From: Fibrobacterota bacterium
GTDB lineage: Bacteria > Fibrobacterota > Fibrobacteria > UBA11236
Assembly (NCBI GenBank): GCA_028287505.1
Contig: JAQBPN010000006.1
Span: 1-64,000, forward strand
Reading direction: 5' to 3'
DNA length: 64,000 nucleotides
In this document: piece after piece, positions 18,226-43,511 of the stretch
Position numbering within the stretch: position 1 is the first letter of the stretch
Layout of the letters: the number at the start of each line of letters is the position of its first letter
Translations under genes and position numbers: made by a program
Notes under the pieces: generated by a model
Seen by the model: the letters and a program-made list of their open reading frames with translations, nothing else
Told to the model about the DNA's origin: nothing
Databases searched by the model: none

Positions 18226-18314
18226 CGATTTTCCTTTTTGGATTACATGCAAAGGAATCGAGGTTTTAGACTGTAATTCGATTCAGAAGTGCGTTTGAAC
18301 GTAAGTCGTAAATG

Positions 18315-22317: not shown

Positions 22318-22932
22318 TTAGCCAAGGAATGCCTCCAAATACGGACCAAGGACTTTCGAGACTCCGCGCAATTCAGCAAACCTCCTGATATCCGTCGGAG
22401 CCGCCTTCTTTGAACGCAAACCTTCCTTAAGCGCTTCCACGGCAACCTCCATTCCGATTTTGTTCCGATAACGAAAGCAATCGGCGATGGTTTTTGCCAG
22501 GCTATAAACTCTCACCGTGATACCGTTCACGGGTTGTATTTCAATACCTTCCCGAAAAGCCTTTCCTGAAAACCGAACAACACGCAAATCCATGGACATG
22601 CCTCTTGGCTTCCAATCTCCTTGCTCGATGGCAATCCAAATGGATGGATGCAGTTGGGTCGACACGCCATGGACTTCCAATGCTGTCAGCAAACAAAAAA
22701 CCGCCTTGGGAGCCTTGATGGCGACTTCGAGGAAACTTTCCTTGCCTGAAATCGGGACGCCAGGAAGGGAGTATAGACCTCTTGATATCCTGAGTAGCAT
22801 CCCTTGCTCCACCCAGCGCACCAGCGCCGTTCTGGAGACCCCAAGGGCTTCCGCTTCTGAAGCGCGAAATGGCCCTTTTACAGCCTTTTTTCGGAGGGAT
22901 TGAGGAAGTAGTGTGTTGCGAATCATAAGCAT
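22318..22932 (-). CDS. AbiEi-family type IV antitoxin (toxin partner missing)
   Basis: About 204 residues. The N-terminal winged helix (FRASEAEALGVSRTALVRWVEQGMLLRISRGLYSLPG) is the AbiEi DNA-binding domain. The C-terminal domain (VFCLLTALEVHGVSTQLHPSIWIAI, VYSLAKTIADCFRYRNKIGMEVAVEAL) is typical of the family. AbiEi represses its own operon and neutralises the AbiEii nucleotidyltransferase. Here no intact AbiEii gene follows. Several near start codons (22941 GTG, 22932 and 22926 ATG) are available and none has a ribosome-binding site, so translation may be leaderless. Three half-sites of a 13-base palindrome lie 75-130 bases upstream, a likely operator. Confidence 0.8.
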   Translation of the reverse strand: MLMIRNTLLPQSLRKKAVKGPFRASEAEALGVSRTALVRWVEQGMLLRISRGLYSLPGVPISGKESFLEVAIKAPKAVFCLLTALEVHGVSTQLHPSIWIAIEQGDWKPRGMSMDLRVVRFSGKAFREGIEIQPVNGITVRVYSLAKTIADCFRYRNKIGMEVAVEALKEGLRSKKAAPTDIRRFAELRGVSKVLGPYLEAFLG

Positions 22933-23007
22933 ATAATACACATATAATTATGATTTGAAACAGTCAAAAAACTATATATCCATATTTCTCATTTGTTGAT
23001 TTGGCCA

Positions 23008-23547: not shown

Positions 23548-24534
23548 ATGAAGACTTTAGAAGGCCCGCCGACTGAACTTGAGGAAATATCCTTGAAAAA
23601 CAAGGCAAATTTCCTCACGAAACAGATTCCACCGCCGATTTTTGCTAGGCACGAAACTTTCCACCCAAGATTTGGGTGGCTAAAAAAAGGTTTCGACAAA
23701 ATCATTGAAGACGAAGCGATTTTTCTCTCCCCAGATGCACCGGTGCTACTCGGGGTCGGAAAGAACATGGTTCAGGCAATTCGCTTTTGGTGTACTGCTT
23801 TTAAAGTGGTGGACGAGCACCAAAATAAAGGCGAAAAAGCCCGAAAAGGTAAGCCAAGCCAATTTGGAAAGAGGCTTTTAGATGATACAGGGTGGGATCC
23901 ATATCTTGAGAATACAAATTCTCTCTGGCTCTTGCACTGGCATTTACTTAAGCAACCATGCACAGCTACTGCATGGTATTTCTTTTTTAATTACTTCCAC
24001 CAACATGATTTCACAGTAAACGAATTTTCTGATGGCTTGATAGATTTTAAGAAAATTAATTATCCAAATTCGAAAATTGTCGATGAATCTTTGCACAAGG
24101 ATGTCTCTTGCCTTTTGAGAATGTACGTGTCACATTCAGAGTTAAAACAGCCGGCTGAAGAATCTTTAGACTGTCCGTTTACAAATCTGAATCTCATCCA
24201 AATTGACGAAACGAAAAGATTCAGATTCAATACTGGCGAAAAATCGAACCTCTCTCCAGAAATATTGGTTTCGGCATGTTTGGACTTCGCATCAATGGAA
24301 TCTGACCAACCAGGTACGATTTCAATCACGCGCTTGCTGTATGATATTGGCAGCCCTGGATTAGCGTTTAAAATTTCCGAGAGCTTTATTTGCGCAGCAA
24401 TTGAAAATATTGTCACAAGAAATTCAGATATCACCTTTTCTGAAACAGCCGGGCTGATCCAGCTGGGATTCAAGAGAAGACCGTCGGATTTAAAGGAACT
24501 AATTCTCAATTCCTTCTATAAGAAAAACCGGTAG
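23548..24534 (+). CDS. DUF4007-family protein
   Basis: A 328-residue protein with the DUF4007 hallmarks: FARHETFHPRFGWLKKGFD, VLLGVGKNMVQAIRFWCTAF, GWDPYLENTNSLWLLHWHLL and ATAWYFFFNYF. DUF4007 proteins are found next to PAPS-reductase-like and ATPase genes in defence loci tied to DNA phosphorothioation. Their biochemical role is not established to my knowledge. It is the first gene of a seven-gene operon; the start ATG follows GAGG with about 5-base spacing. The next gene starts 11 bases after its stop. Base composition is AT-rich, matching the island. Confidence 0.8.
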   Translation: MKTLEGPPTELEEISLKNKANFLTKQIPPPIFARHETFHPRFGWLKKGFDKIIEDEAIFLSPDAPVLLGVGKNMVQAIRFWCTAFKVVDEHQNKGEKARKGKPSQFGKRLLDDTGWDPYLENTNSLWLLHWHLLKQPCTATAWYFFFNYFHQHDFTVNEFSDGLIDFKKINYPNSKIVDESLHKDVSCLLRMYVSHSELKQPAEESLDCPFTNLNLIQIDETKRFRFNTGEKSNLSPEILVSACLDFASMESDQPGTISITRLLYDIGSPGLAFKISESFICAAIENIVTRNSDITFSETAGLIQLGFKRRPSDLKELILNSFYKKNR

Positions 24535-24545
24535 GGGAGATTTAA

Positions 24546-27500
24546 ATGCCATTATTAAGCGAGTATATCAAGCTTTCAAGACGGTATACCCGTTCTATAA
24601 ATCTTGAGCGCGACCTGCACGATTCGGACGCGCTCAATGGGTACATCCCTACCGAAAATACACGCGATGTATTGAACAGATTCTTTTTAGCTTATTCGAC
24701 GCCAAAGTCTTGTCGAGCATGGACATTAACAGGTCCGTACGGATCCGGCAAATCTGCTTTTGCACATTTCCTTCTTTCACTATACGGAAATGAAGCCGAT
24801 CCTATTCGTGCAAAGGCCCAAAAAATATTACGGGAAAATATCGGTAATTCGATTTTGCCTTTCAAAAGCTATAAGGCAAACCTTTCTGACCGCGGAGTTG
24901 TCAGGGCCATTGCAACAGCTCAAAGAGAACCCATTTCAAACACAATTATTCGAGCCCTTTGGAGGGGAGTGCAACTTTTTTGGCGGGAGAACAGGGGAAG
25001 AAATCCAAGCTGGGTTGACGATCTAGATGACTTAGTCAAAAAAATATCAAAGGGTAAGCTCATCCCTGCGGCAACGGCCTATGAATTTGTTCAAACGGTT
25101 TCGCAAGCTACCGATCACGGACTGCTTATAGTCATAGATGAATTGGGTAAAAATCTTGAATATGCTGCCCAAAATCATACTACAGATGACTTGTTCCTTC
25201 TCCAACAAATCGCTGAACTTCCGTCCAATGAAGACTCTCCAAAGGTTTTCATAGTCGGCCTCTTGCATCAATCCTTTTTGGACTACGCGCATATTCTTCC
25301 AAATGGCCAGCGGAATGAGTGGGCAAAAGTACAGGGGCGATTTGAAAGTATCCCTTTCGTAGAATCACCAGACCAAACCCTTAAGCTGTTGAGCCAAGCA
25401 ATAATCAGGAAAAATACCGGACCGGTCCAAGATAGGGTGTATTCCTGGGCCAAAAAATGGCGTGGTGCCTTTGGCGAAGATCCCTATGTTCTAAGGACGT
25501 TGGGCGAATCCTTACCTAACCTGTTCCCCCTTCATCCCATCGCGGCAATATCACTTCCAATTTTGTGCAACAAGTTTGCACAAAATGATCGGTCCTTGTT
25601 TACGTTCCTGACGGGATCACAACCTCATTCTTTCAATAATTTTTTAAAGGAAGAAAGTTGGAGTGAAAACCAAACAAGGTCTCTGCAACTTTATCGTGTT
25701 TATGACTATTTCGTGGATTCGGCAGGAATCGCGATGAATTCGCGACCCCAAATGCAAAGGTGGGTAGAGATCCAAGGCCGAATTGATGAAGCGAAACACC
25801 TAAGCCTTGAATCTATCGTGGTTTTGAAAACAATAGGCCTTCTAAATCTTGTATCCCTATCAGGGCCGCTTAGGGCTACACGTCGCTTGGTGGTAAATGC
25901 CTTGCTTGATAGAGCTGATGACCCAAAGAAATCCGAATGGGAAAAATCCATTGATGACCTGATCAACCAAAACCTTATTATCTGGCGGAAACAGATTGAT
26001 GAGCTTCGAATCTGGGAAGGCTCTGACTTCGATATCGAAAAAGCAATTTCTGATTCAGCATCAACAATTCAGATTTCCCTGGCGCATACGTTGTCTAAAA
26101 GCTGGCCGCTGCGACCTCAATTGATCCAACGCCATAGCTATAAGAGCGGAACTTTGCGCTTTTTTCAAAGGTTGTACATCGATAAATCGGAACAACTCCT
26201 TGAGCTTTCTCAAAAGCCAACTGAATTTGATGGCGTCATTTGCTTTTGGATAGGCGCCACCCCAGAGTTTGATGAGCTACCCAATTTTAAGACTGCGGAC
26301 GGAAAGCCTATCGTATTAGTTGTTGGGAGACAACAGTCTGTTCTTCAATCTCTTTGCAAAGAATATTTGGCGCTAAGGTCAATCGAAAACAAAACGCCTC
26401 AGATTCAAAATGATGGCGTGGCGCGGAGGGAAATTAAGCAAAGAATTTTCATTTTAAAAAATTCAATTGCCGAGTCGATTCAACGCTCATTTGATTTTTC
26501 TTCGGAAGAAATTCTGGTAGTTATCGAAGGAGTAAAGTCAAAGACAACAGGTGAATCTCGATTTCATTCTGAGCTTTCAGACCTAGCTGACAAAGTTTAT
26601 TCGAAATCCATGGTCCTTTGGAATGAACTGATTAATAGAAAAGAAATTACTGCCCAAGCAGCCAAAGCTAGAAGCGAATTAATTGAAGCAATCCTAACGA
26701 AGTCAAGCATAGAGCGACTTGGCCTAGAAGGCAATGGGCCTGAATGCACAATTTATGAATCGATTCTTAAGTCTACTGGAATGCATCATGAGGAAAATGG
26801 AAAGTGGACAATTGGTCAGCCGAAAGCAAATAGTTCAATCCAGGAAGTTTGGATAGCGATTCAAAACTTCTTTTTATCAGCCGTAGACCAAAAGAAACCC
26901 CTAAGCGCCCTATACGATCACCTATATGCTCCTCCATATGGAGTTAGGCAAGGACCGCTCCCAATCATGCTGGCGGCATTTTTGGTGCAGCATACGGATG
27001 ATATCAGCATTTTCTATGAAGGGAGCTTTATTCCCTCCCTTGGGCCTGAAAACTTTGAGTTAATAGTGAAGGCTCCCCACAAATTTGAATTCAAATATTT
27101 TGAACTCACAGGGCTAAAAGCACAGTTCTTCAAGGAACTTGAATCCATCTTTTCAAATTCAAAAGATCCCGGTAACGTCCAAACCAGAACCTTAACCTTG
27201 CTAAGGGTAGTCAAGCCTCTCATACGGTTTATACGTGGATTACCAGCCTATACGCTCAAAACCAAAAACATCAGCAAGGAAGCAATGGAGGTTAGGAAGG
27301 TACTCCTTGAAGCAATTGAACCCGATCATCTCTTGTTTGAACTATTGCCACGTGCATGCGGAATTGATCCTATTCAATTCAAGGATGGCGGCGATATTGA
27401 ACGGGCAAAACTTCTTAAGAAAAAGGTTGTCGCCGTTTTAAAAGAGCTGCAATCAGCTTATGAAGACCTGTTAAATTCGAACAAAAAACTTATTTACGAG

Positions 27501-28049
27501 GCCTTCTCGGTTCGCAGCCAGGCAGAGAATATCCGAGAGGATCTCAGAGTACGGGCAAGCTACTTGCAAGGTCAATGCTTAGAAATGAGACTTAGGAGCT
27601 TCCTGTATGCGGCAACTAATGAGGACGCTACCGAAAAGGAATGGCTTGAAGGTCTAGTGATGGTCATTGCGGACAAACCCGCGGAGTCGTGGCTTGATGA
27701 CGACCAGCTTGGGTTCGAGATGAACTTAAGTGATATGGCTCGCAGGTTCATGAATCTCGAAGCCTTGCAAAAGGAATTCGCCCAGGCGCCATCGGCGGCA
27801 TTCGATGCCAGGAGAATTACCATTACTCAGCCGAATGGACAAGAAATCCACCAATTGATTTGGATAGACAAGGAAAAGCAAGAAATAATTGATCATTGGG
27901 TGGATAACATTTTAAAAAGCGAAACAATTCGGGGTAACGAATCGCTAAAGCAAGTCCTCGTTGCCGCACTAATGGAAAAGGTTTTTTCCCAAGAAAAAAT
28001 CAAAAGAGAAAAAATGGGTTCCGGAAAGAACGGTAAAAAATATGCTTGA
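24546..28049 (+). CDS. Large AAA+/P-loop ATPase of the phosphorothioation-like operon
   Basis: An 1167-residue protein. Walker A is G63-P-Y-G-S-G-K-S70 and Walker B is LLIVIDELG with D198 and E199. Residues 1-40 (SRRYTRSINLERDL, NGYIPTENTRDVL) precede the P-loop as in BrxC- or PglY-like defence ATPases. The long C-terminal part is helical, with charged stretches near residues 950-1030 that may be coiled coil. A strong AGGGGAG site precedes the ATG. The stop overlaps the start of the PAPS-reductase-like gene by 8 bases. It probably acts as a DNA-dependent ATPase in modification or interference; assignment to a named subunit is not possible by eye. Confidence 0.75.
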   Translation: MPLLSEYIKLSRRYTRSINLERDLHDSDALNGYIPTENTRDVLNRFFLAYSTPKSCRAWTLTGPYGSGKSAFAHFLLSLYGNEADPIRAKAQKILRENIGNSILPFKSYKANLSDRGVVRAIATAQREPISNTIIRALWRGVQLFWRENRGRNPSWVDDLDDLVKKISKGKLIPAATAYEFVQTVSQATDHGLLIVIDELGKNLEYAAQNHTTDDLFLLQQIAELPSNEDSPKVFIVGLLHQSFLDYAHILPNGQRNEWAKVQGRFESIPFVESPDQTLKLLSQAIIRKNTGPVQDRVYSWAKKWRGAFGEDPYVLRTLGESLPNLFPLHPIAAISLPILCNKFAQNDRSLFTFLTGSQPHSFNNFLKEESWSENQTRSLQLYRVYDYFVDSAGIAMNSRPQMQRWVEIQGRIDEAKHLSLESIVVLKTIGLLNLVSLSGPLRATRRLVVNALLDRADDPKKSEWEKSIDDLINQNLIIWRKQIDELRIWEGSDFDIEKAISDSASTIQISLAHTLSKSWPLRPQLIQRHSYKSGTLRFFQRLYIDKSEQLLELSQKPTEFDGVICFWIGATPEFDELPNFKTADGKPIVLVVGRQQSVLQSLCKEYLALRSIENKTPQIQNDGVARREIKQRIFILKNSIAESIQRSFDFSSEEILVVIEGVKSKTTGESRFHSELSDLADKVYSKSMVLWNELINRKEITAQAAKARSELIEAILTKSSIERLGLEGNGPECTIYESILKSTGMHHEENGKWTIGQPKANSSIQEVWIAIQNFFLSAVDQKKPLSALYDHLYAPPYGVRQGPLPIMLAAFLVQHTDDISIFYEGSFIPSLGPENFELIVKAPHKFEFKYFELTGLKAQFFKELESIFSNSKDPGNVQTRTLTLLRVVKPLIRFIRGLPAYTLKTKNISKEAMEVRKVLLEAIEPDHLLFELLPRACGIDPIQFKDGGDIERAKLLKKKVVAVLKELQSAYEDLLNSNKKLIYEAFSVRSQAENIREDLRVRASYLQGQCLEMRLRSFLYAATNEDATEKEWLEGLVMVIADKPAESWLDDDQLGFEMNLSDMARRFMNLEALQKEFAQAPSAAFDARRITITQPNGQEIHQLIWIDKEKQEIIDHWVDNILKSETIRGNESLKQVLVAALMEKVFSQEKIKREKMGSGKNGKKYA

Positions 28050-28842
28050 AAAAAAAATTCGCCACATTATGGGTTTATCTGGAGGCAAGGACAGCGCCGC
28101 TCTTGCCATTTACCTTTATAAAAAAATCCCAAACCTCGAATATTTCTTTTGTGACACTCACAAAGAATTACCCGAAACCTATGAGTTTCTGGATAGAATT
28201 AAGGCCAGACTCGGAATAAAAATTGAATATTTGAGCGCAGAGAGAGGCTTTGATCACTGGCTAAACGTATATGGCGGCTACCTGCCTTCACCAAAATCTA
28301 GGTGGTGCACGAAACAATTAAAAATTGTTCCCCTCGAAAAATTTGTAGGGGAAGATGACGCCATAAGTTACGTGGCCATACGCGCCGATGAAAATCGCGA
28401 AGGATATATTTCCACAAAACCCAATATTAAAGCGGTTTTTCCTTTCAAGGAGGCTGGCATTGATTTGGCGGGAGTCAGGAAAATTCTTGATGAAAGTGGC
28501 ATAGGAATTCCCTCCTATTACGAATGGCGCACAAGGTCAGGGTGCTATTTCTGCTTTTATCAGCGGAAATATGAGTGGGTTATGCTTGCACAGGAGCACC
28601 CTGATTTATTTGCAAAGGCCATTGAGTACGAAAAAATGCATAGTGATGGCCGGACATTTACTTGGACTCAAAAAGAAACGCTGGAGGAGTTGATCGCCCG
28701 GAAGGACGAAATTCTCGCCGACCATGATAAAAACCTCTTAAGGACTAAAAAAGCAAGCCCTAATAAGCCCCTTTCAGCTATTCTTGGGCAAGTTTTAGAT
28801 GCGGAAGACGATTCACTTCCATGTCAAATATGCCATTTATAA
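28042..28842 (+). CDS. PP-loop PAPS-reductase-family protein (DndC-like, short)
   Basis: A 266-residue protein with the PP-loop S-G-G-K-D-S at residues 13-18, FFCDTHKELPETYEFL, and Cys at 89 (SRWCTKQLK), 168 and 171 (SGCYFCFYQRKYEW). A further C-x-x-C is at the very end (261, 264). In Dnd systems DndC binds ATP and a Fe-S cluster and delivers sulfur to the DNA backbone. This protein is about half the length of DndC and nearer the compact family found with DUF4007. It overlaps the preceding ATPase gene by 8 bases. The role in sulfur transfer to DNA is inferred from family and context; the cysteine desulfurase at the end of the operon fits as sulfur donor. Confidence 0.78.
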   Translation: MLEKKIRHIMGLSGGKDSAALAIYLYKKIPNLEYFFCDTHKELPETYEFLDRIKARLGIKIEYLSAERGFDHWLNVYGGYLPSPKSRWCTKQLKIVPLEKFVGEDDAISYVAIRADENREGYISTKPNIKAVFPFKEAGIDLAGVRKILDESGIGIPSYYEWRTRSGCYFCFYQRKYEWVMLAQEHPDLFAKAIEYEKMHSDGRTFTWTQKETLEELIARKDEILADHDKNLLRTKKASPNKPLSAILGQVLDAEDDSLPCQICHL

Positions 28843-28921
28843 AAGCAGACTATTCGGACTCGAAAGAACCTACGACGAATACAACTCTGTTCCCAAAAAC
28901 CTAACTGACAGACGAGGTAAA

Positions 28922-30802
28922 GTGAGCGAATCAAGTGTAGTGGAAAAATCCTGCTTGGATTCCAAATGGATTAAATTCCTCCGTCAGTTCGGTCCAATCC
29001 CCCAAAATGATAATATGTATGACGAGGTAATCCGGGCATCCGCACGGAGAGCCAATATCAAGCCAATAGTTTTTGAAACGGAATATTTGCAGGAGGTTGT
29101 GGAAAACTTTCAATCTACAGCCCCGGTTTCCATTATTCTCACTGGGACCGCCGGTGATGGGAAGACCTTTTATTGCCGGCAAGTCTGGGTAAACCTAGGA
29201 GGCTCGGAAGAGATTTGGAATGGTGGAGCAAAAATCCCGAAAATATTGGCGTTAGATTTACCTTACAAAAAGCTTTTCATCATTAAAGATCTTTCCGAAT
29301 TGGATGATACCGATTCGAATTTTCTTTTCCAAATTGCAACCGATCTACTTTCTTCAAACCCATTGAATGTGTACCTCATCGCAGCTAATGACGGGCAATT
29401 GGTCGACCGATGGAAAAGTCTTGGTTCGGACCCTATTATTGAAAAAGTGAAATCTGGGATTGAAGAGCATCTGCTTAACGGCAAAAGCGATACAGTTCAA
29501 TGCAAGCTATTCAATTTGAGCAAGCAAAATGCATCAATGATGCTGGAACGGATCATCGAGTCAATTGTCCAGCATCCTGGCTGGGACGGGTGCAAGGGAT
29601 GTAAGTATTTGGTTGAGACGGCAACCAGAGCAAGGTGCCCAATTTTGGAAAACAAAGCTCGCCTTCAAGGGAAAGAGGGCGAGCGTCTCTTAAGAACGAG
29701 GCTTGCTGAATTAATTGAACTTAGCGAGCTAAATGAGACCCACTTTCCGGTGCGACAACTCTTGATCTTAATTTCTAATGCGATTTTAGGCCATCCCGAC
29801 GTGGATCTTCACCTCATGACGTGTAAGGACGTTGAAAAGATCCTTGAATCTGGTTCGAGCCATTTGGCCAGTGTTTTCAGAAACATCTTCGGTGAAAATT
29901 TATCCAAGCGCAAAAGAGAGACCACAGATGTTTTCGAAAAACTTGGTCGTTTTGGGATTGGAAGTGAAACCAGCAATAGCATTGACAACATTCTTGTTTA
30001 TGGCGAGGATGATCCTGAGTTGACCCCTCTTTACAATGAATTGGTGTTATCAGATAAGGTTTTCGGAATCAATCCCCAGCAGCAGGCGGTAAAGAGGAAT
30101 TACCTCGAAGGAGTCCAGGGCAGCGATTCAGAACCTTTTTTAAATCTCCTGAGGGCTCACAGGCAAAGAATATTTTTCACTATGCCTGAAAGAATGGTTG
30201 GTGAACTCCGGTTATGGGACTTGACTGTGTTTCAAAATGCGGGAGAGTATCTATCCCTTACTCGAATTTTGAAAAGCAGAAAACCCATTCATCAAACCCT
30301 TGTGAAGAAAATCGTCAAAGGAATGAATCGGGTTTTTACTGGAATGCTTCTATTTAATCAGGAAGAAATTGTTTTGGCAACTTCAGGCAGCCATTCACAA
30401 GCCAAAACAAGTCTCATTTTGGAAGACTTCATTTCGGTTCCGAAGAAGCAAGGCGAAAGTGTTTCTATCCAACTAGGACAAGATTTAGGATTGCAAAAAG
30501 ATGTACCGGTCCTATGTGTTACAATTGGAAAATCCCCTGACCTCCAGCCAATTTATCTACCGCTAACTCTGTTAAGATTTGAATTCCTTTGCAGAGTAGC
30601 GGATGGCGTACTCCCGAGTAGCTTTTCGCTTGAATGTTATGAAGATATGCTAGCCTACAAATCAAGCATTTTAAAGCAACTCGAAAAAAGAAGAATGATT
30701 GACAACGATGGAATTCCCACCGTGGGACTGGATATCAGATTCCTAGAATTGAAACCGGACGGCTTCGTTACTACTCGTACAGTGGATGTGAAAATTCAAT
30801 GA
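28922..30802 (+). CDS. dptF: DptF-like P-loop ATPase
   Basis: About 626 residues from the GTG at 28922, preceded by CGAGGT. An upstream in-frame ATG at 28799 would overlap the previous gene by 44 bases and is less likely. Walker A is G-T-A-G-D-G-K-T at residues 75-82 of this form. A Cys cluster (GWDGCKGCKYL ... RARCPI, near 220-240) may bind a metal. The region LASVFRNIFGENLSKRKRETTDVFEKLGRFGIG resembles DptF (DndF), an ATPase of phosphorothioation-dependent restriction. Its stop overlaps the start of the next gene (ATGA). The DptF name is a family-level call from memory of the family. Confidence 0.65.
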   Translation: MSESSVVEKSCLDSKWIKFLRQFGPIPQNDNMYDEVIRASARRANIKPIVFETEYLQEVVENFQSTAPVSIILTGTAGDGKTFYCRQVWVNLGGSEEIWNGGAKIPKILALDLPYKKLFIIKDLSELDDTDSNFLFQIATDLLSSNPLNVYLIAANDGQLVDRWKSLGSDPIIEKVKSGIEEHLLNGKSDTVQCKLFNLSKQNASMMLERIIESIVQHPGWDGCKGCKYLVETATRARCPILENKARLQGKEGERLLRTRLAELIELSELNETHFPVRQLLILISNAILGHPDVDLHLMTCKDVEKILESGSSHLASVFRNIFGENLSKRKRETTDVFEKLGRFGIGSETSNSIDNILVYGEDDPELTPLYNELVLSDKVFGINPQQQAVKRNYLEGVQGSDSEPFLNLLRAHRQRIFFTMPERMVGELRLWDLTVFQNAGEYLSLTRILKSRKPIHQTLVKKIVKGMNRVFTGMLLFNQEEIVLATSGSHSQAKTSLILEDFISVPKKQGESVSIQLGQDLGLQKDVPVLCVTIGKSPDLQPIYLPLTLLRFEFLCRVADGVLPSSFSLECYEDMLAYKSSILKQLEKRRMIDNDGIPTVGLDIRFLELKPDGFVTTRTVDVKIQ

Positions 30803-32346
30803 GAAATAGAATCCCACGCCCCCTGAATATCGGGCAAAATGAGATGTGGATTGACGAAGCAATATGGGGGCATCGCTTACATGATGAGCAATCTCCCTGG
30901 CTATGCTTCCTTGAATTTCTGGGAGTTCTATACTCCGAGCATAAGAAAGGATCCGCCTTCGTAGAAGCAAAGCCCAACACCCTAACTTATGCGCCGCAGA
31001 TACAGTTAAATATTCGCAACATCTTGTTCAACAACCCGACTATGGGCGTCATTGTATCAGAAACAAGAAATGATCAAGATAGATGGACGAGATGGCTTGA
31101 AAGAATGAATAGCAAAGCAGCCAATCGGGAGCCAACCGATTACTCTTATTTAAGGAATCATTTTGATTCTTTCGATGATTTTTTCTTTGTAGTTAAATTT
31201 CTTAGGTCTTCTGCAATAGAAGGAAACAGCAATAAGCGGTGGAGTTCAAAATTTGTATTCCCTTATGGGCCCAATTGCCTGTATGAGGATCTCAATTTCA
31301 AGAATGATGGATTTTCAAACGACAGAAGATTTTTCGGTAGGACCGGAGAAATCCTTTATCTCATGCTTTGCCGGAGTGGCAAGGGTAAGGAAATACTCGA
31401 AAAGCTTGCTCCGATTGTATTTAACGAAACTTCAAAATGGAACATTTTAGGAGGAATTCTACAAGGTAGTCCGCAAAATAATGAGGCGAAGGGCGGGACC
31501 TATCTGCCCTATGAGTTTGAACCGGAATACGGTGATATTGCCTCCGATTGGCTATCAGTCCTAAATTTGCGATTGCCCGGATATGATGCCCTACCTCATT
31601 TGGTAACACTACTAGGCTTCCACCTAATTCGATACCAATTAAATCAATCCCGGATTGAACTCGGTGAGATGGGGAAGGCTACCTTTATTTTTGAAATTGT
31701 CGCTCCGAAGAAAACAATTATACGAGATTTGGCCGCAGAATCCTTCAGCGAAAACAACAGCCTTCCGCAGCAGGCCATAGAGAAAATGATCAAGGATATT
31801 TTTTCCACCTCTGAATGGGAGCAGGCAAAATCTTCAAATGACCCTCAGGGTCAGGCCATTAAACTGTTACAGGAAAAATTTGCATGGCCAAACAAACAAA
31901 ATGAGACGGCTCTTCAGATCCAAGAGCCCGATGGGCTAGCAAAATACTTGGTGGATTGCTCACTCGCTCGACATAAGCAACACCTTGGAAAATTCCACGG
32001 TACCTGGGGTAGACTAATTGGGTTATCCTCACGTCGGGTAAGCAGAAGAACAAGGTATGCACCGACAGACAGTTTTTTAAAAAGTCTCGTAGTTTCAAAT
32101 GTCAAAAGCCGAATGGAATACCAGGAATTCCTTCGCATCCTTTTTGAAAGATATGGAATAATTATCGGTGAGAAACAGGCCTTTGGCAATCCGCTAATCC
32201 AATCCTTAAACGCCGATAAAGAGTCCTTTGCTGACAATTCAAGAAGACTTGAGGAGCGCTTATCTAGCCTAGGTCTATTGAGGCGATTATCCGATGCCTG
32301 CGCTTACGTAGAAAATCCCTTGGTAACGATGGAGAAGACCACGTGA
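30799..32346 (+). CDS. Unrecognised subunit between DptF- and DptH-like proteins
   Basis: A 515-residue protein, overlapping its neighbours by four bases on each side (ATGA at 30799, GTGA at 32343), so it is a core part of the operon. Its position corresponds to DptG in dptFGH loci, but I see no motif that proves the homology. Features include a GGTYLPYEFEPEYGDIASDWLSVLNLRLPGYDALPHLVTLLGFHLIRY block and a basic segment (GRLIGLSSRRVSRRTRYAP) that could contact DNA. No P-loop, nuclease or methylase motif is visible. Confidence 0.6.
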   Translation: MRNRIPRPLNIGQNEMWIDEAIWGHRLHDEQSPWLCFLEFLGVLYSEHKKGSAFVEAKPNTLTYAPQIQLNIRNILFNNPTMGVIVSETRNDQDRWTRWLERMNSKAANREPTDYSYLRNHFDSFDDFFFVVKFLRSSAIEGNSNKRWSSKFVFPYGPNCLYEDLNFKNDGFSNDRRFFGRTGEILYLMLCRSGKGKEILEKLAPIVFNETSKWNILGGILQGSPQNNEAKGGTYLPYEFEPEYGDIASDWLSVLNLRLPGYDALPHLVTLLGFHLIRYQLNQSRIELGEMGKATFIFEIVAPKKTIIRDLAAESFSENNSLPQQAIEKMIKDIFSTSEWEQAKSSNDPQGQAIKLLQEKFAWPNKQNETALQIQEPDGLAKYLVDCSLARHKQHLGKFHGTWGRLIGLSSRRVSRRTRYAPTDSFLKSLVVSNVKSRMEYQEFLRILFERYGIIIGEKQAFGNPLIQSLNADKESFADNSRRLEERLSSLGLLRRLSDACAYVENPLVTMEKTT

Positions 32347-35300
32347 ATTCAATTGAGTTGATAGGTCAAGTCGGCGCAGAAACTTTAAAAAGGGCCTTGG
32401 AAAAAGAAGGTGACAACTCAGGAGACAATGGTGTCGCACGATTTATTATGCACCAACTTACAGGGAATCAAGTCGGTCAAATTGTTCGAGAAATTCTAGA
32501 TGATCCAATTTTAAAAGAAAAAATTGAAATTAAAATTCCAAGGGAATTTGTGGAAAGTGAAGGGTTGCCGGAGGAGACTTTAACCAGCGAAAGAACCACA
32601 GCCCTCAGGCATGCTCCTTGTACGAAAGCTGCACTTTTACTTGCCAATACCAATGATGACCAGGATCAGTCCTTAAAAGACATAACAAGACTAGGAGCTT
32701 CTGAATTTAAAGAGTCGCCAAATATTTGGGTGGCAATCGCCTCGCGCGGACTACCGCTTTTACCGGAAATGCATCTCCACTGGGCATGCGCCCTTAGAGG
32801 CCTTTTGCTTGCCCATGAGGTCAGTTTAGAAGACTATGCGAATTATATTAAGCTAACTGCCGAACGCATTAGGATTGACTCTGTACCCCTGTATGACGCT
32901 CTTGGTTGGGCCCTCCCCGCCCTTCGATTGCCGAGAAATTCTGGCCGCTTTGTATCCATTAAAAGCAGAGATTTTAATAACCCTGGTGCCTGGAAACGTT
33001 CGTTCGGTGAGGCTTTCCAGAAGTTACAACCGTTGCTGAAAAAGCAAACATCTTCGAGGCAAATTTTAGAACCCGAGGTATTGCAACTTCAATTCGAGTC
33101 AGTAAAGGATCAAATTCCATCAGAGGCGCACGGCGTGGTCCAGGCTTTCATCAACGCGGGCCCAAACTGGACTGAGCAGTCCGCTGCCCTATCAGAATTA
33201 GAGTGGGAGCAACAAAGCATATGTCAGGTTTTTTCAGGGATCAAAACCGAAAAAATTAGTCTTGCCGATGAAACGATCCATTTTTTTGACTTTGCACATC
33301 CTAAGGCATTAACTGAAGACGATTCAAAATACTTGGTCACCTTAAGGCAAAGAAAAACGAAGGAACCCCATGAGGAAGATAAGGAGTTCTTCGAAAAGCA
33401 CAGGAATGAATTGCATGATGATAAGCCACTAAAATCAAAGTGGGACAAATTTATTTATGGCAAAAACATTGAGTGTACAGATTTTTTGGTCGGCTTAATA
33501 AGCGCATTGGAACGCCTATATGAACAAGCGGCACCTTTTTCTGGAAAAAAGAAACTCATTATCAGAGCTCAGCGAAAAACAAAAAAAGCCTGGATGGAGC
33601 TGAATACTGACCTTGGTTTATTTTTTTGCCTGAGATATCGTGGCATTGAAAAAATGACATCCCCATTCATAGATTGGGAAGTGTCGAACCTTTTTTCATT
33701 CGATAAATTAATTAATGAACTACTACAGCAAGAGGCCAAAAAGCGGAAATATCCTATTAATACATCCTCTGCTAAATCGGCTACCCAAATAAAGTTTGAA
33801 ATCGAGCTTCAATTTTCTGGTACCCAGGTTAAAAGGTCTCAGGTAACCCAACTTATTTGGATGGGAAATCCCAATTCAATTGGAGGGCAAATTTATGATG
33901 ACTTGGACAGATTATCCAAAAAACCATTCGTACGCCATGAAGTTTCTCGGCAGCCCATTAACAAAAAGGGTCAACTTCAATCGATTTCATTAGAGGATGT
34001 TTCCTCCCTTGATGCTGCTTTCAGGCAAGATGCAGGGTCCTTAATCGGAACATATCACCTTGCTAATGATTTTGGGAAACCCTATTTGAAAAAAATTGAA
34101 GAGGCCGAAAAGCAGAATCGACTCGATAAAGATGGGGCATATGCCATTAAGCATGCCTGGAATACTTTTTCAGAAAATTACAAAAGCGCATTGGTTAACT
34201 GGTTAACCAATGGTGTCCAGTGTCCTGAAATTCTGACGCAGGCCTATGCATTTGGCGCGCTCTTAGAAATCTTGAAATTGCATTGCCGCGGTGACCTCAA
34301 CCGGAAAGATTTTTGGGAGCCCATTCTTCAAATAGGCAATATTGATATTGTCGGAGGGGCCCCAGCTGCAATTATCGCTCCCTGGCACCCTTTACGGTTA
34401 GCTTCTATCGCCGTTAAAACAAGGCTTGTTGCCGGGCTTTTCAAACGAATACTATCCAGAGAAGATGTCAATTTTGGTGATTCCAGGCTATTTTTTGCTG
34501 ATCTCAAAGAGGAGTTACTCCATCCATTTTACCCTGAAGTATCTGTCGGCCGTACTAGCGGCGCATTTCAACTACTGATAGCGACCGATACTCTAAACGA
34601 TTATAGCCTAATGGAAATGTCAACGAGAAGTGATATGGATTCTGCCACAAATGAATCGCCTAAGGATTCGGCAAATAAAATTGTCGACCTCGTAGATCGG
34701 TATTTGACACTCCAGCCGCATGAGCAAGCGAATTTAAGCCTTGCTCTTTACAACTGCGACTCAACAGGGCTTCCTATAGCCGCAGTGGAGGCTTTGGCGG
34801 CTTTTAAAGAGGACGAAGAAGTTCGGTGCAATATTGTGCTAAAGCACAACGACAATGTGAAGTTAAGTCACTTGTATTCCGAAATGCTGGAAAGCGTTGA
34901 TTCCGACCCCGATGCCGCCGTGGCAAGCGAGAATTCTAGAGATTTTATGGCAAAGCTCCGTGTAGGAATATTGCTAGATGCCGCGCCAAAGAATAATTCC
35001 ACCGATGGGAAGCTGGTCGATATTGTCTTTCTTCAGGATGTCGTTTCAAGGAGGGCGTCATGCAGCTGGGTTTCACAGAACTTCATTGAGGTCCCTCCGA
35101 ATATCCTTGATCATATTCCGCCGAGGTGGTCATACAAAAGATCGGCAGCTGAGGATGAGCTGAAATCTTCATCATATATTGTTTGCCCAAGACAACCAGC
35201 CTGCGGACTTGCCTATCTTGATGCCGTATTTTCACTCACTACAAATGAATCGGCCCCTAAGGATTCTCACAAGTTGCCGATAAGGCAAATCGCATTCCAC

Positions 35301-37709
35301 GATGGATCAATTAACTCTTTATTCGAAGAAGTTCATAATTTGGCCGAGTGGGTGGTTAACTATGACACCCTTTTAGATAAGCGATTGCTTAAGAACCAAA
35401 ACATCAATATTATTCGGTACCAACGAAACCGCTCGCAAGGCCGAAATTTACTTGTATCCTCCACCTCACAAACTAGGGTATTGATAGCTTTAGTCATACG
35501 TCGACTAACGGAGTTAAATCTTGGTATTCCCCCTGAGTCCATTCATGAATTGGCAAAAAAGCTTATTTCGGAAGCCGGGGAAGTTTCTGGTGATATAGTC
35601 ATGCGGGCTGCTAAGAGAGGCGTATTCGCTGGTGAATTGTTAGGACTGGTACTAAGCAAGCTTCTTGTAAAGTCAGAAATCTCTGCGACTCAACCGGTTA
35701 TTTGGTTTTCTCTGGACGAGTATGCGGATTGGCTTGGACAAAAAGAGGAGAAAATCGCCGATATTCTTGCCCTGAGTGTGTACGAACGTCAAGGGGAGAC
35801 GATCTTAAAAATTGTTGTAACCGAATCCAAATATATCGACACTACGGGAGCTTCTGAGGCGAGGCGCAACTCCTCTCGGCAATTAACCGATACTGTGAAG
35901 CGGATTGAAGATGCCCTTTTTGGTGACCCAGGCCGGCTTGACAGAGATTTATGGCTGTATCGACTAAGTGATTTGATTTCCGAGGGAATCCCAAATGGCC
36001 TCGCTGCCAACAGAATGTTCGATGCCATTCGAGACAAGGTTCGCCTAGGGGAGGTAAAAATTGATATCAAGGGATATTCCCATGTTTTTGTCCATGGGCC
36101 TTCTGGTTCAGCGTACCCGAGTGATCAGGAAGATTTGGGTTCAACAAGCAATTGCTATCAAGAGGTGTTTGACAGGGAGAGTGTTCGAAATTTGGTTCTA
36201 AATTACCTGAAAAATGAGTCCATATCAGAGATTAGGAAAAAGCTTGGTGACAAAAAGCCTTGGGACTTTGAAGTCCCAAAGATGCCTGCACCCAGAGTCT
36301 CCTGGGTGGACAGGCAAGGCCTTTCCCCTGAGGATATTTCGCTTGGCGAAAGGGTTCAAAACAGTAACTATCCGAATGCTTTGAATCCATATTCAATTGA
36401 ATCTACACAGCATTCTCTGCCCCAGAAGGATGGCGGGTATCCCATTGGAACCGACGCCCCCTCTGCTGAAGATGATCAGCCGCATGAATTGAAAAATAGC
36501 GGTCTTGTCGAGCAGCCTGAGGTCGAGGATATCGTACTGCCGTACTCCCCAGCCGTCAACAAATTGATTTTGGAGAATAGCCTCGGGCTTGCAACTAGCC
36601 CAGAGGACTTTCAATGGCTCGAAACAATCGGAATGACATTACGGACCGCCCTTGTTAGCTATGACCTTCAAGCAAAGATTCTCGGGTCGAGGCTAACCCC
36701 TAACGCTGCTGTTGTTCGACTCAAAGGGACAGATCGTTTAAGGACAGAAGATATTGAAAAAAAACAGTCCCAACTTTTAACTACCCATGCTTTGCAAATC
36801 ATTAGTATTACCGGAGTTCCTGGTGAAATCGTAGTGGCAATTGCCAGACCAAAACGTCAAACTATTTCTCTTTGGGACCTATTAAAGGAGAGGAAAATAA
36901 ATAGGTCAGATTCCGGGATTAACATGAGCTTCATCCTAGGCGTCAGGGAGCTCGATGGCGAGCAGCTTTTCTTGAACTTATCAGGGCCGTTTGGAGGAAG
37001 TGTTCAGCATGCCCCACATACCCTAATTGCTGGAGCTACTGGTAGTGGAAAATCTGTGCTATTGCAAAATTTGGTTTTAGATATATGCCTTACCAATTCA
37101 CCAAGACTTGCAAACATTTACCTCATCGATCCTAAAGGTGGAATCGACTACCCAGGCCTGGAGAAATTACCTCATCTAAAAGGTGAGGTAATAGTCGACC
37201 AAGGTAAAGCCATGGAAGTTCTGGAATTCTTGGTACAAGAAATGGACCGCCGATATCAGCTTTTCCGAGGGAAGGCCTCAAACCTTCTTGAGTACAATTC
37301 TAAGGTAGGATTTGAAGGACACCTCCCCGCGATTTGGCTAGTACATGACGAATTTGCAGAATGGATGATGATTGACACATACAAGGATGCGGTATCTGTT
37401 AGCGTCCAAAGGTTAGGAGTAAAAGCCCGTGCAGCTGGTATTCATCTTATTTTCGCAGCCCAAAGGCCTGACGCGAATGTTATGCCTGTACAGCTTCGCG
37501 ATAATCTTGGAAATCGCCTTGTGCTTCGAGTCGAGAGCATTGGTACTTCAGAAATAGCTCTGGGTGCAAAAGGAGCGGAAAGATTGCTTGGGAAGGGACA
37601 TCTCATTGCGAGGTTAAGTGGTGAACCGGATTTTATCTTTTCACAGGTGCCCTTTCTTTCCAATTCAGATGTGGCGCGGATCGCCGAAGCACTAAACGAT
37701 AGCAAGTGA
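32343..37709 (+). CDS. dptH: DptH-like protein: FtsK/HerA-type motor with a candidate nuclease site
   Basis: A 1788-residue protein. The C-terminal 230 residues form an FtsK/HerA-like motor: Walker A G-A-T-G-S-G-K-S near residue 1563, LIDPKGGIDYPGL, Walker B IWLVHDEFAEW near 1665, and IHLIFAAQRPDANVMPVQLRDNLGNRLVLRV. Size and layout fit DptH (DndH), the large ATPase of phosphorothioation-dependent restriction. In the middle, D1140, E1161 and K1163 (ADILAL ... VVTESKY) have the spacing of a PD-(D/E)XK nuclease core, followed by a helix with conserved-looking ARRNSSRQL. The start is a GTG overlapping the previous stop. The next gene begins one base after the stop. Confidence 0.75.
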   Translation: MNSIELIGQVGAETLKRALEKEGDNSGDNGVARFIMHQLTGNQVGQIVREILDDPILKEKIEIKIPREFVESEGLPEETLTSERTTALRHAPCTKAALLLANTNDDQDQSLKDITRLGASEFKESPNIWVAIASRGLPLLPEMHLHWACALRGLLLAHEVSLEDYANYIKLTAERIRIDSVPLYDALGWALPALRLPRNSGRFVSIKSRDFNNPGAWKRSFGEAFQKLQPLLKKQTSSRQILEPEVLQLQFESVKDQIPSEAHGVVQAFINAGPNWTEQSAALSELEWEQQSICQVFSGIKTEKISLADETIHFFDFAHPKALTEDDSKYLVTLRQRKTKEPHEEDKEFFEKHRNELHDDKPLKSKWDKFIYGKNIECTDFLVGLISALERLYEQAAPFSGKKKLIIRAQRKTKKAWMELNTDLGLFFCLRYRGIEKMTSPFIDWEVSNLFSFDKLINELLQQEAKKRKYPINTSSAKSATQIKFEIELQFSGTQVKRSQVTQLIWMGNPNSIGGQIYDDLDRLSKKPFVRHEVSRQPINKKGQLQSISLEDVSSLDAAFRQDAGSLIGTYHLANDFGKPYLKKIEEAEKQNRLDKDGAYAIKHAWNTFSENYKSALVNWLTNGVQCPEILTQAYAFGALLEILKLHCRGDLNRKDFWEPILQIGNIDIVGGAPAAIIAPWHPLRLASIAVKTRLVAGLFKRILSREDVNFGDSRLFFADLKEELLHPFYPEVSVGRTSGAFQLLIATDTLNDYSLMEMSTRSDMDSATNESPKDSANKIVDLVDRYLTLQPHEQANLSLALYNCDSTGLPIAAVEALAAFKEDEEVRCNIVLKHNDNVKLSHLYSEMLESVDSDPDAAVASENSRDFMAKLRVGILLDAAPKNNSTDGKLVDIVFLQDVVSRRASCSWVSQNFIEVPPNILDHIPPRWSYKRSAAEDELKSSSYIVCPRQPACGLAYLDAVFSLTTNESAPKDSHKLPIRQIAFHDGSINSLFEEVHNLAEWVVNYDTLLDKRLLKNQNINIIRYQRNRSQGRNLLVSSTSQTRVLIALVIRRLTELNLGIPPESIHELAKKLISEAGEVSGDIVMRAAKRGVFAGELLGLVLSKLLVKSEISATQPVIWFSLDEYADWLGQKEEKIADILALSVYERQGETILKIVVTESKYIDTTGASEARRNSSRQLTDTVKRIEDALFGDPGRLDRDLWLYRLSDLISEGIPNGLAANRMFDAIRDKVRLGEVKIDIKGYSHVFVHGPSGSAYPSDQEDLGSTSNCYQEVFDRESVRNLVLNYLKNESISEIRKKLGDKKPWDFEVPKMPAPRVSWVDRQGLSPEDISLGERVQNSNYPNALNPYSIESTQHSLPQKDGGYPIGTDAPSAEDDQPHELKNSGLVEQPEVEDIVLPYSPAVNKLILENSLGLATSPEDFQWLETIGMTLRTALVSYDLQAKILGSRLTPNAAVVRLKGTDRLRTEDIEKKQSQLLTTHALQIISITGVPGEIVVAIARPKRQTISLWDLLKERKINRSDSGINMSFILGVRELDGEQLFLNLSGPFGGSVQHAPHTLIAGATGSGKSVLLQNLVLDICLTNSPRLANIYLIDPKGGIDYPGLEKLPHLKGEVIVDQGKAMEVLEFLVQEMDRRYQLFRGKASNLLEYNSKVGFEGHLPAIWLVHDEFAEWMMIDTYKDAVSVSVQRLGVKARAAGIHLIFAAQRPDANVMPVQLRDNLGNRLVLRVESIGTSEIALGAKGAERLLGKGHLIARLSGEPDFIFSQVPFLSNSDVARIAEALNDSK

Positions 37710-37710
37710 T

Positions 37711-38877
37711 ATGAGCCCGATTTACCTAGATAACCATGCCACAACCCAGGTTGACCCTCGGGTTTTGAGCAAAATGCTGCCATTTTTTTGCGAGGCATTT
37801 GGAAATTCATCAAGTCAGGATCACATTTATGGTGATCAGGCCTCCGCGGCTGTTGAAGAAGCTCGCTTTGAAGCTGCAAAATTAGTCAACGTAGACCATC
37901 GGCGACTCTACTTTACCTCAGGTGCAACCGAAGCAATCAACATTGGAATAAAGGGGCTAGCGCTTGACCGCAAAAATGCAAGGGGGAAGATAAGGATAGC
38001 TGTGGCGCCAATCGAGCATCATGCCGTTCTTGAAACGTGTAAGGAACTTTACAGCCTTGGAACTGCTGATATCGAATCAATTCAAATCGATTCCCAGGGG
38101 CGGATTGATTTAGACCAGGTTCAAGCCCTTTGCGAATCCAACATCGATTTGCTTTGCATTATGGCGGCAAATAATGAAGTTGGAAACCTCTATCCAGTTA
38201 GTGAGATCTGCAATATTGCGACGAAAAATGGAGTACCTGTCTTTTGCGATGCTTCACAAGCTGTAGGGAAAATTCCATTTGATTTTTCCGCTTTGGGAAT
38301 ATCTATGGCCGTTTTTTCAGGCCACAAAATGTACGGCCCAAAAGGCGTTGGCGCATTGTTTGTATCAAGTGATATTAAACTTTATCCTGTGCTGCATGGG
38401 GGCGGCCAAGAGCGTGGAATGCGTCCAGGTTCATTGAATGTTCCCTGCATTGTTGGGTTGGGTGAGGCTTGCCGGCTTCAAGGCTTTGAAATGGAAAGCG
38501 ATGATCGCCGGATACGGGCCCTCCGAGATTCATTACAAAGGTTTTTTCAAAATGAAATTGATGATGTGGTGATTAATGGTGATGAAAATTATAGGCTCGC
38601 CGGAAACTTAAACGTTTCATTCATTGGCGTTCCAAATTCTGCCGTAATTTCGCGTGTACGGAATGCCCTTGCGATTTCTACTGGCTCTGCTTGCAGCGCT
38701 GGTGTTGATGCACCTTCTCATGTATTATCTGCAATGAGGCTTGAAGCCGATGTTATTGAAGGTGCCCTTAGATTCGGAATAGGCAAATTCAATACTGGTG
38801 AAGAATTAACAAATGCCGCCAGAATTGTCTCCGATGCTGTTAAAGAAATCAGGAGAATTGTGCGAAGCGGTTTTTAG
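37711..38877 (+). CDS. Cysteine desulfurase (DndA/IscS-like)
   Basis: A 388-residue PLP enzyme. The N-terminus YLDNHATTQVDPRVL, the PLP lysine K206 in FSGHKMYGPKGVGALF and the sulfur-carrying C328 in STGSACSAGVDAPSHVL are all present. IEHHAVLETC, AANNEVG and GMRPGSLNVP complete the class V aminotransferase pattern. It would remove sulfur from cysteine and pass it on as persulfide. At the end of this operon it most likely supplies the PP-loop protein for DNA sulfur modification, the DndA role, rather than general Fe-S assembly. It starts one base after the DptH-like stop and converges with the receiver gene at 38883, leaving 5 bases. Confidence 0.88.
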   Translation: MSPIYLDNHATTQVDPRVLSKMLPFFCEAFGNSSSQDHIYGDQASAAVEEARFEAAKLVNVDHRRLYFTSGATEAINIGIKGLALDRKNARGKIRIAVAPIEHHAVLETCKELYSLGTADIESIQIDSQGRIDLDQVQALCESNIDLLCIMAANNEVGNLYPVSEICNIATKNGVPVFCDASQAVGKIPFDFSALGISMAVFSGHKMYGPKGVGALFVSSDIKLYPVLHGGGQERGMRPGSLNVPCIVGLGEACRLQGFEMESDDRRIRALRDSLQRFFQNEIDDVVINGDENYRLAGNLNVSFIGVPNSAVISRVRNALAISTGSACSAGVDAPSHVLSAMRLEADVIEGALRFGIGKFNTGEELTNAARIVSDAVKEIRRIVRSGF

Positions 38878-43443: not shown

Positions 43444-43490
43444 TGCACCCACCCGGATTCGAACCAGGGGCCAACGGTTTAGAAAACCGC
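43444..43490 (-). pseudogene. 3' half of a tRNA-Arg(TCT), remnant at island boundary
   Basis: On the minus strand the anticodon arm (GCGGT-TTTCTAA-ACCGT, anticodon TCT), variable loop, T-arm (CCTGG-TTCGAAT-CCGGG) and acceptor 3' strand TGGGTGCA are intact. The 5' acceptor strand GCACCCA and the D-arm are absent, and the preceding bases belong to the end of the response regulator gene. Such 3'-half fragments are typical att scars of elements that integrate into tRNA genes. The base composition changes at this point. Confidence 0.65.
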
Positions 43491-43511
43491 GGGTCCCCGA
43501 TATCTTGGAAA

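What the first reader, a model, noticed from the sequence alone, without database searches (positions are those of the whole stretch)
23548..38877. Seven-gene phosphorothioation-like operon without DndB, DndD or DndE
Order: DUF4007, BrxC-like ATPase, compact PP-loop protein, DptF-like, unknown, DptH-like, cysteine desulfurase, almost all overlapping or within 1 base. Sulfur donor and PP-loop enzyme are present, but the usual SMC-like DndD and nicking DndE are not seen, and modification and restriction genes are interleaved in one transcript. The known archaeal DndCDEA-PbeABCD and bacterial DndFGH layouts differ. The DUF4007 protein and large ATPase may take over the DndD/E role.
Basis: partly seen in the sequence, partly recalled or inferred. 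Interest (0 to 1): 0.7.

Follow-up and report, generated by a model that had tools for sequence, protein, structure and literature searches.

The report
Sulfur-DNA defence operon with signalling pair
The seven genes are a complete copy of a known bacterial anti-phage system that marks its own DNA with sulfur (SspABCD-SspFGH), but the two unreported genes beside it form a signalling pair that turns out to accompany such systems across several bacterial phyla and often stands in place of their known DNA-damaging partner.

Summary
The operon (23548-38877, +) is real and complete. It is not a Dnd variant but a published kind: sspB-C-D-F-G-H-A, the SspABCD-SspFGH phosphorothioate (PT) defence system of 2021. 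SspB and SspC already replace DndE and DndD there.

Five bases after sspA, tail to tail, lies a two-gene operon (43278-38883, -). It encodes an 803-aa double-GHKL histidine kinase with a MORC/Hsp90-like N-terminus (HK) and a 659-aa partner (RR). RR has an intact receiver domain and an output domain whose predicted fold resembles MazF/CcdB.

Searching genomes with HK alone split the hits cleanly: 43 of 47 loci of its clade carry ssp genes, against 0 of 33 for more distant HEF_HK-type kinases, many of which sit with cytosine methylases. Two more of the 47 sit beside other PT genes. 27 loci are sspBCD-HK-RR without sspFGH in view, so the pair is a candidate effector or switch for "orphan" sspBCD. 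The only published hint found is one passage on Acinetobacter baumannii.

Association is strong; mechanism (PT-state sensing, phosphorelay, output activation) is inference. Verdict: known system plus a largely unrecognised module; new variant of a known kind.

The parts
23548..24534 (+). sspB (DUF4007; three-wHTH DNA-binding/nicking subunit in characterised systems)
   Evidence: PADLOC SspB 1.2e-115, Pfam DUF4007 8e-96; phmmer to solved SspB 6juf 4.5e-60
24546..28049 (+). sspC (BrxC-like ORC/Cdc6-type AAA ATPase), Walker A GPYGSGKS at residue 63
   Evidence: PADLOC SspC E=0, 1284 bits, against BrxC 455 bits; motif
28042..28842 (+). sspD (PP-loop ATP pyrophosphatase), SGGKDS at residue 13; C89, C168, C171, C261, C264 conserved in 58-59 of 59 homologues
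   Evidence: PADLOC SspD 8e-114; PF01507 2e-13; motif and conservation
28799..30802 (+). sspF (P-loop protein, Walker A GTAGDGKT conserved in homologues; true start probably near 28952)
   Evidence: PADLOC SspF 8.9e-212 starting at residue 58; alignments
   Evidence: PADLOC SspG 2.2e-197; MADS7 7.4e-10
32343..37709 (+). sspH (1788 aa; C-terminal FtsK/HerA translocase, Walker A GATGSGKS at residue 1564); C-terminus resembles MAD8
   Evidence: PADLOC SspH 2203 bits; PF01580 4.9e-32
37711..38877 (+). sspA/dndA-type cysteine desulfurase (PLP lysine in SGHK, catalytic Cys328 in TGSACSAG)
   Evidence: PADLOC DndA 1.9e-130 and SspA 6.6e-130; sequence
38883..40862 (-). RR: 659-aa response-regulator-like partner; receiver domain (D20, D21, D142, S179, K207 invariant in 42), helical linker, MazF/CcdB-fold output domain at about 349-486 (G354, C389-D390-L391, R485)
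   Evidence: alignments; models and fold matches
40867..43278 (-). HK: 803-aa double-GHKL kinase; N-terminal MORC/Hsp90-like HATPase_c_3, DHp-like region with invariant H588-E589, C-terminal HATPase_c (start may be 43230)
   Evidence: Pfam PF13589 7.4e-15, PF02518 3.4e-14, PF19191 weak 0.0038; alignment; conservation of H-E in 60 of 60; PDB profile hits to histidine kinases and Hsp90
43444..43512 (-). tRNA-Arg(tct) at the right edge of the low-GC island that holds the system
   Evidence: GC 42-49% between about 16 and 44 kb (53% at 20-22 kb), 57-65% outside

Best explanation
Two adjoining, convergent operons make one PT-based anti-phage locus. (1) SspA mobilises sulfur, SspD activates it, and SspB with the AAA ring SspC choose the site and put a PT into one DNA strand; SspFGH damages DNA without the mark. 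This is transferred by homology from the characterised system. (2) HK-RR is a PT-linked two-component module. Its N-terminal MORC-like GHKL ATPase most likely senses a DNA state (PT-marked, unmarked or damaged DNA), the kinase half phosphorylates H588, the phosphate passes to D142 of RR, and the MazF/CcdB-fold output domain then acts as a growth-arrest or nucleic-acid effector, a second line beside SspFGH or, in sspBCD-HK-RR loci, the only one in view. Shown here: identity of all ssp parts; genomic coupling of HK-RR to PT genes; intact phosphotransfer residues; receiver fold; MazF/CcdB-like predicted fold. Inferred: what is sensed, that phosphotransfer occurs, what the output domain does.
For: Ssp identity: against PMC8092258. 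Coupling of HK-RR to PT: a genome scan seeded with HK alone gave 47 clade loci, 43 with ssp genes within the fetched flanks and 45 with RR; 33 distant HEF_HK-type loci gave 0 and 0 (Fisher 2e-18; 36/37 against 0/15 when only loci of 20 kb or more are counted). Two of the remaining four sit beside PbeA/PbeC-type genes (L025) or the PT-associated methylase TIGR04096 (L053). All 16 plasmid records with a full-length HK also carry SspD. In L007, L049, L057 and L063 HK-RR lies directly after sspC inside the ssp cluster (in three of them between sspC and sspD), and in about 30 loci it follows sspD on the same strand within 200 bp. No other gene family recurs in more than 9 loci. Receiver: VIA Z 11.5 to CheY, 2.2 A over 113 residues. 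Output domain: every one of the 50 listed rows is a MazF, CcdB or Kid-type toxin, best Z 8.9, 105 of 114 residues; Foldseek probability 1.00.
Against: HK and RR evolve together (rho 0.80) but hardly with any Ssp protein (0.07-0.35), so the pair moves between Ssp lineages and need not touch Ssp proteins. The MazF catalytic arginine is not seen in RR and profile comparison to a PemK protein gives nothing; the fold match is to a predicted model with Z near 9. Co-location in defence islands could reflect shared mobility. No PT, phosphotransfer or phage assay exists. Retrieval took the hits nearest to the window's HK, so the association rate is for that clade only.
Confidence: 0.68

Rival explanations
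1. HK-RR is only a regulator: a cytosolic two-component system that adjusts transcription or activity of the ssp genes, with RR acting as a DNA-binding or protein-binding regulator rather than a toxic effector.
For: Intact DHp and receiver residues; present both with and without sspFGH; a sister branch sits with methylase systems, which suits a general epigenetic-status regulator.
Against: No helix-turn-helix output was found; the output domain resembles a toxin fold. In 27 loci no sspFGH is in view and no SspE signature was found, leaving sspBCD with no other recurrent effector candidate.
Confidence: 0.35
2. HK-RR is a separate defence or restriction-associated system that merely shares islands with ssp genes.
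For: Low co-evolution with Ssp proteins; one clade member (L060) has no PT gene in a 22-kb locus and lies beside a TniQ gene.
Against: 45 of 47 PT-linked, against 0 of 33 ssp-linked in the sister family; position inside the ssp cluster in four loci; no RR hits outside the seed genomes in 787 sampled genomes of two orders, so a chance meeting of two rare gene sets is implausible.
Confidence: 0.12
3. The operon is a new Dnd-type or BREX-type-4 variant.
For: SspC also hits BrxC (455 bits) and SspD hits BrxP and DndC weakly.
Against: Every protein except the desulfurase, which fits DndA and SspA equally, scores far higher against its Ssp model; no PglZ, BrxL, DndD or DndE in the scanned island proteins.
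Confidence: 0.02

Closest known systems
SspABCD-SspFGH (Vibrio anguillarum FF-93; Wang et al. 2021, PMC8092258)
   Same: Same seven protein families, same grouping of BCD and FGH, FtsK-like SspH and Walker-A SspF.
   Different: sspA is the last gene of the operon here (FF-93 was expressed with iscS); a convergent HK-RR operon follows, which the parts of the paper that were read do not mention.
Ssp locus of Acinetobacter baumannii global clone 2 (PMC12421847)
   Same: sspBCD with the same HK-RR pair next to sspD (L019); [quoted passage not shown]
   Different: No sspFGH near it in L019; the passages read do not identify the pair as a recurrent partner of Ssp in other bacteria.
HEF_HK / Response_reg_2 two-component-like pair (Bellieny-Rabelo et al. 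2021, PMC8011034)
   Same: Double-GHKL kinase plus a receiver-bearing partner; partners of distant HEF_HK-type kinases share the receiver and the GD...TPxCDL...RxG output region with RR (hhalign 98.6%, E=9e-16).
   Different: The published family is tied to type II restriction-modification, with no word on PT; the PT branch is below the HEF_HK cut-off in the window and does not hit PF19192.
MORC/paraMORC GHKL ATPases of restriction systems (Iyer et al. 2008, PMC2292703)
   Same: N-terminal GHKL ATPase encoded in a DNA-modification neighbourhood; a DNA-looping role was proposed there.
   Different: Here fused to a full histidine-kinase half.

Membership tests
SspABCD PT modification | SspB (DUF4007), SspC (AAA), SspD (PP-loop) encoded together | tested here: met
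SspABCD PT modification | Cysteine desulfurase (SspA, or IscS in its place) | tested here: met
   37711-38877, catalytic Cys and PLP Lys present
SspABCD PT modification | Single-strand PT at 5'-CCA-3' and SspB nicking activity | not testable with these tools
   needs LC-MS/MS and biochemistry
SspFGH restriction module | SspF with Walker A, SspG, SspH with FtsK-like C-terminus, adjacent to sspBCD | tested here: met
SspFGH restriction module | Damages DNA lacking PT | not testable with these tools
   known only for FF-93 (PMC8092258)
SspE-type Ssp | SspE (DGQQR motif) beside sspBCD | tested here: not met
   no such motif in the window's open frames and no SspE hit among the scanned proteins
Dnd system | DndB, DndD and DndE | tested here: not met
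BREX type 4 | PglZ and BrxL with BrxC and BrxP | tested here: not met
   no PglZ or BrxL among proteins scanned; SspC and SspD fit Ssp models better
HEF_HK / Response_reg_2 pair (Pfam) | HEF_HK domain above curated cut-off | tested here: not met
   18.1 bits against 24.1 in the window protein
HEF_HK / Response_reg_2 pair (Pfam) | Partner with Response_reg_2 (PF19192) | tested here: not met
   no PF19192 match at E up to 1 in 12 members; yet homologous to partners of distant HEF_HK-type kinases
Two-component system | Phospho-acceptor His next to HATPase_c; receiver with DD, D, T/S, K | tested here: met
   H588 invariant; D20, D21, D142, S179, K207 invariant; receiver fold Z 11.5
Two-component system | Phosphotransfer from HK to RR | not testable with these tools
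   needs in vitro assay
MazF/PemK toxin family | MazF/CcdB fold | tested here: met
   predicted fold only
MazF/PemK toxin family | Sequence similarity and catalytic Arg of MazF | tested here: not met
   so it is not filed as a MazF

The most novel reading that the evidence does not exclude
HK-RR is a third effector arm of PT defence: a MORC-like kinase reads the PT state of DNA and, by phosphorelay, switches on a MazF/CcdB-fold effector that stops growth or infection. It would be the missing partner of many 'orphan' sspBCD systems, including that of A. baumannii global clone 2, and one branch of a wider class of epigenetic-mark-reading two-component modules whose other branch serves methylation systems.
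Probability: 0.35. Interest if true: 0.82.

Novelty: new variant of a known kind. Interest (0 to 1): 0.6.

Why it matters
In the 2021 survey, over four fifths of sspBCD loci had neither sspFGH nor sspE, and the authors asked whether other restriction partners exist. A conserved two-gene pair that sits exactly there gives a named, testable candidate. It would also link DNA backbone modification to histidine-kinase signalling, and tie two separately described observations (HEF_HK pairs in restriction islands, and the effector-less Ssp of a major hospital clone of A. baumannii) to one family.

Tried and rejected
Dnd, Pbe and BREX-4 membership of the operon: rejected by model scores. Whole-chain Foldseek of RR gave no significant match; folding the C-terminal part alone was needed. 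Profile comparison with a PemK/MazF protein gave nothing, and an alignment meant as a MazF reference set was not one. Integration repeats of the tRNA-Arg end were not found in the window. Promoter-like matches do not exceed shuffles (28 against 31.6 expected) and terminator-like ones barely do (29 against 22.8, sd 4.7), so transcript borders are not supported by sequence. Random genomes of two orders gave no new RR, so a prevalence estimate was not possible. E. coli genomes hold no close copy of the operon.

Full report
What was claimed.

All seven ORFs exist on the + strand, tightly packed (junction sequences). They lie in a low-GC stretch (mostly 42-49% from about 16 to 44 kb, against 57-65% outside) that ends at a tRNA-Arg gene. 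The genome has one copy of SspB and of RR, and no other of 166 held genomes of the phylum gave an SspG match, so the island was probably acquired.

The operon is a known system. In PADLOC the seven proteins match SspB, SspC, SspD, SspF, SspG, SspH and DndA/SspA at E-values of 1e-113 or better. SspB also matches the solved SspB structure 6juf (4.5e-60). Key residues are present: SGGKDS and five nearly invariant cysteines in SspD, Walker A motifs in SspC, SspF and SspH, catalytic Cys and PLP Lys in SspA. SspABCD-SspFGH was described in Vibrio anguillarum FF-93 in 2021 (PMC8092258): SspABCD marks one strand at CCA, SspFGH damages unmarked DNA and blocks phage replication. That SspC stands for DndD and SspB for DndE is also published (PMC10853773). 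Gene order varies in nature: A-B-C-D-F-G-H (L010), B-C-D-F-G-H-x-x-A (L004), and FGH facing BCD (L003).

The neglected neighbour. Plasmid relatives of SspG showed a recurring pair, 'sensor histidine kinase' plus 'hypothetical protein' of about 650 aa, beside or even inside the ssp genes (L005, L006, L007). The window has the same pair on the other strand: HK 43278-40867 and RR 40862-38883, 4 bp apart, their operon ending 5 bp from the stop of sspA. RR hits on plasmids number eight records, seven of them among the 33 that encode SspG, the eighth next to sspBCD and a cysteine desulfurase. All 16 records with a full-length HK also carry SspD, which occurs in 67 of 72,556 records.

Test seeded without ssp. 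One genome scan was seeded only with the HK alignment, and every locus was then searched with locally built models of SspA-H, HK and RR. The hits split in two. In the HK clade (47 loci; 40 groups among the 46 aligned at 80% identity; Pseudomonadota, Verrucomicrobiota, Acidobacteriota, Planctomycetota and Patescibacteria by record titles, with Chloroflexota among plasmids) 43 carry ssp genes and 45 carry RR. Among 33 more distant HEF_HK-type kinases none carries ssp genes or RR as modelled (Fisher 2e-18). Restricting to loci of 20 kb or more gives 36/37 against 0/15. Of the four exceptions L025 has PbeA and PbeC/DndD-type genes and L053 the PT-associated methylase TIGR04096; L048 is a 5.9-kb contig; L060 is a true exception beside a TniQ gene. 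Conversely 13 of 33 distant loci carry a C5 cytosine methylase motif pair and none of the 47 does.

Arrangement. In 27 loci sspBCD genes go with HK-RR and no sspFGH lies in the fetched flank; 13 loci have sspFGH genes. HK usually starts within 200 bp of sspD on the same strand. HK-RR is placed right after sspC, inside the cluster, in L007, L049, L057 and L063. The SspE signature DGQQR occurs only in L004 in a plausible DUF262 gene; other hits look like spurious frames. Flanks of 10 kb cannot exclude effectors further away. No other family recurs in more than 9 loci.

What the pair looks like. HK has two GHKL ATPase domains with intact motifs and, between them, a DHp-like region with an invariant His-Glu. 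The C-terminal half resembles histidine kinases and the N-terminal part Hsp90 in the PDB. RR has no Pfam domain above threshold, but D20, D21, D142, S179 and K207 are invariant in 42 sequences, the receiver set. AlphaFold2 gives a confident model (pLDDT 85.7) whose residues 13-224 match CheY-type receivers (Z 11.5, rmsd 2.2, 113 aligned). The C-terminal part folded alone (pLDDT 83) matches MazF, CcdB or Kid-type toxins in all 50 rows listed (best Z 8.9, rmsd 3.1, 105 of 114 residues, RR about 349-486; Foldseek E=3e-3, probability 1.00). The MazF catalytic arginine is not conserved by inspection and sequence profiles do not connect. RR has its own conserved residues, G354, C389-D390-L391, W438, R468, R485, G487. 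The activity of the domain is therefore open.

A wider family. The genes next to the distant, often methylase-associated HEF_HK-type kinases also encode a receiver and the same GD...TPxCDL...RxG region; profile comparison with RR gives 98.6% probability, E=9e-16, through both domains. So the PT-linked pair looks like one branch of a two-component-like family whose other branch was reported in type II restriction islands (PMC8011034). HK and RR evolve together (rho 0.80) while neither follows SspA-H (0.07-0.35; SspF, G and H among themselves 0.91-0.92), so the pair is exchanged between Ssp lineages as a unit. That fits a reader of the mark better than a subunit of the Ssp enzymes, which is my inference.

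How it may work. Established for homologues: SspABCD marks, SspFGH attacks unmarked DNA. Inferred: the MORC-like ATPase of HK detects a DNA state tied to PT; phosphate passes H588 to D142; the output domain acts. Whether the result is toxicity, nucleic-acid cleavage or regulation is not settled by sequence.

What is known of the link. The literature library gave one hint: in A. [quoted passage not shown] L019 shows the HK-RR pair beside sspBCD in that species, very probably the same genes. No paper found links the pair to Ssp generally; the library holds only open-licence papers, so this is not proof of novelty.

Verdict. The operon as given is a known system in a slightly varied order. The associated HK-RR module makes the locus a new variant of a known kind with strong genomic and weak mechanistic evidence.

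Noticed in passing
window 16762-18252 (-): Anti-phage dCTP deaminase (NF041025, 454 bits against cut-off 400): a second known defence gene in the same island.
   Followed up: partly
window 18428-21129 (-): Two overlapping unknown genes (334 and 574 aa) beside the deaminase, without any family match; possible further defence pair.
   Followed up: no
window 22318-22941 (-): AbiEi-type antitoxin (PADLOC 7.6e-69); no AbiEii toxin was recognised among the neighbouring proteins scanned. Several other ssp loci also have AbiEi/AbiEii nearby (L003, L011, L020).
   Followed up: no
window 28799-28952: sspF as listed probably begins too early: homologues and the HMM start about 50 codons downstream.
   Followed up: partly
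L065-L100 (downstream of distant HEF_HK-type kinases): Partners share the receiver plus GD...TPxCDL output region with RR; the CD motif region is not covered by a Pfam domain in the members tested.
   Followed up: partly
window 30799-32346 and 32343-37709: C-termini of SspG and SspH resemble MAD7 and MAD8 of the methylation-associated defence system MADS, suggesting a shared restriction core.
   Followed up: no
L025:4769-9911: HK-RR beside PbeA and PbeC/DndD-type genes instead of ssp: the pair may serve other PT systems too.
   Followed up: partly
L060:8984-14384: HK-RR directly after a TniQ-domain gene with no PT genes in view; the one clear exception to the PT link.
   Followed up: partly
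L015:20621-23143, L018:13306-15867, L031, L032, L052: A further unnamed family of about 820 aa near five HK-RR ssp loci; its N-terminal region looks GHKL-like by eye.
   Followed up: no
L102, L103 (cyanobacterial plasmids): The closest plasmid SspD relatives (66-68%) lie in sspBCD loci with helicase, ATP-binding and phospholipase-D genes (and a DndB-annotated gene in L102): apparently another kind of effector set.
   Followed up: no
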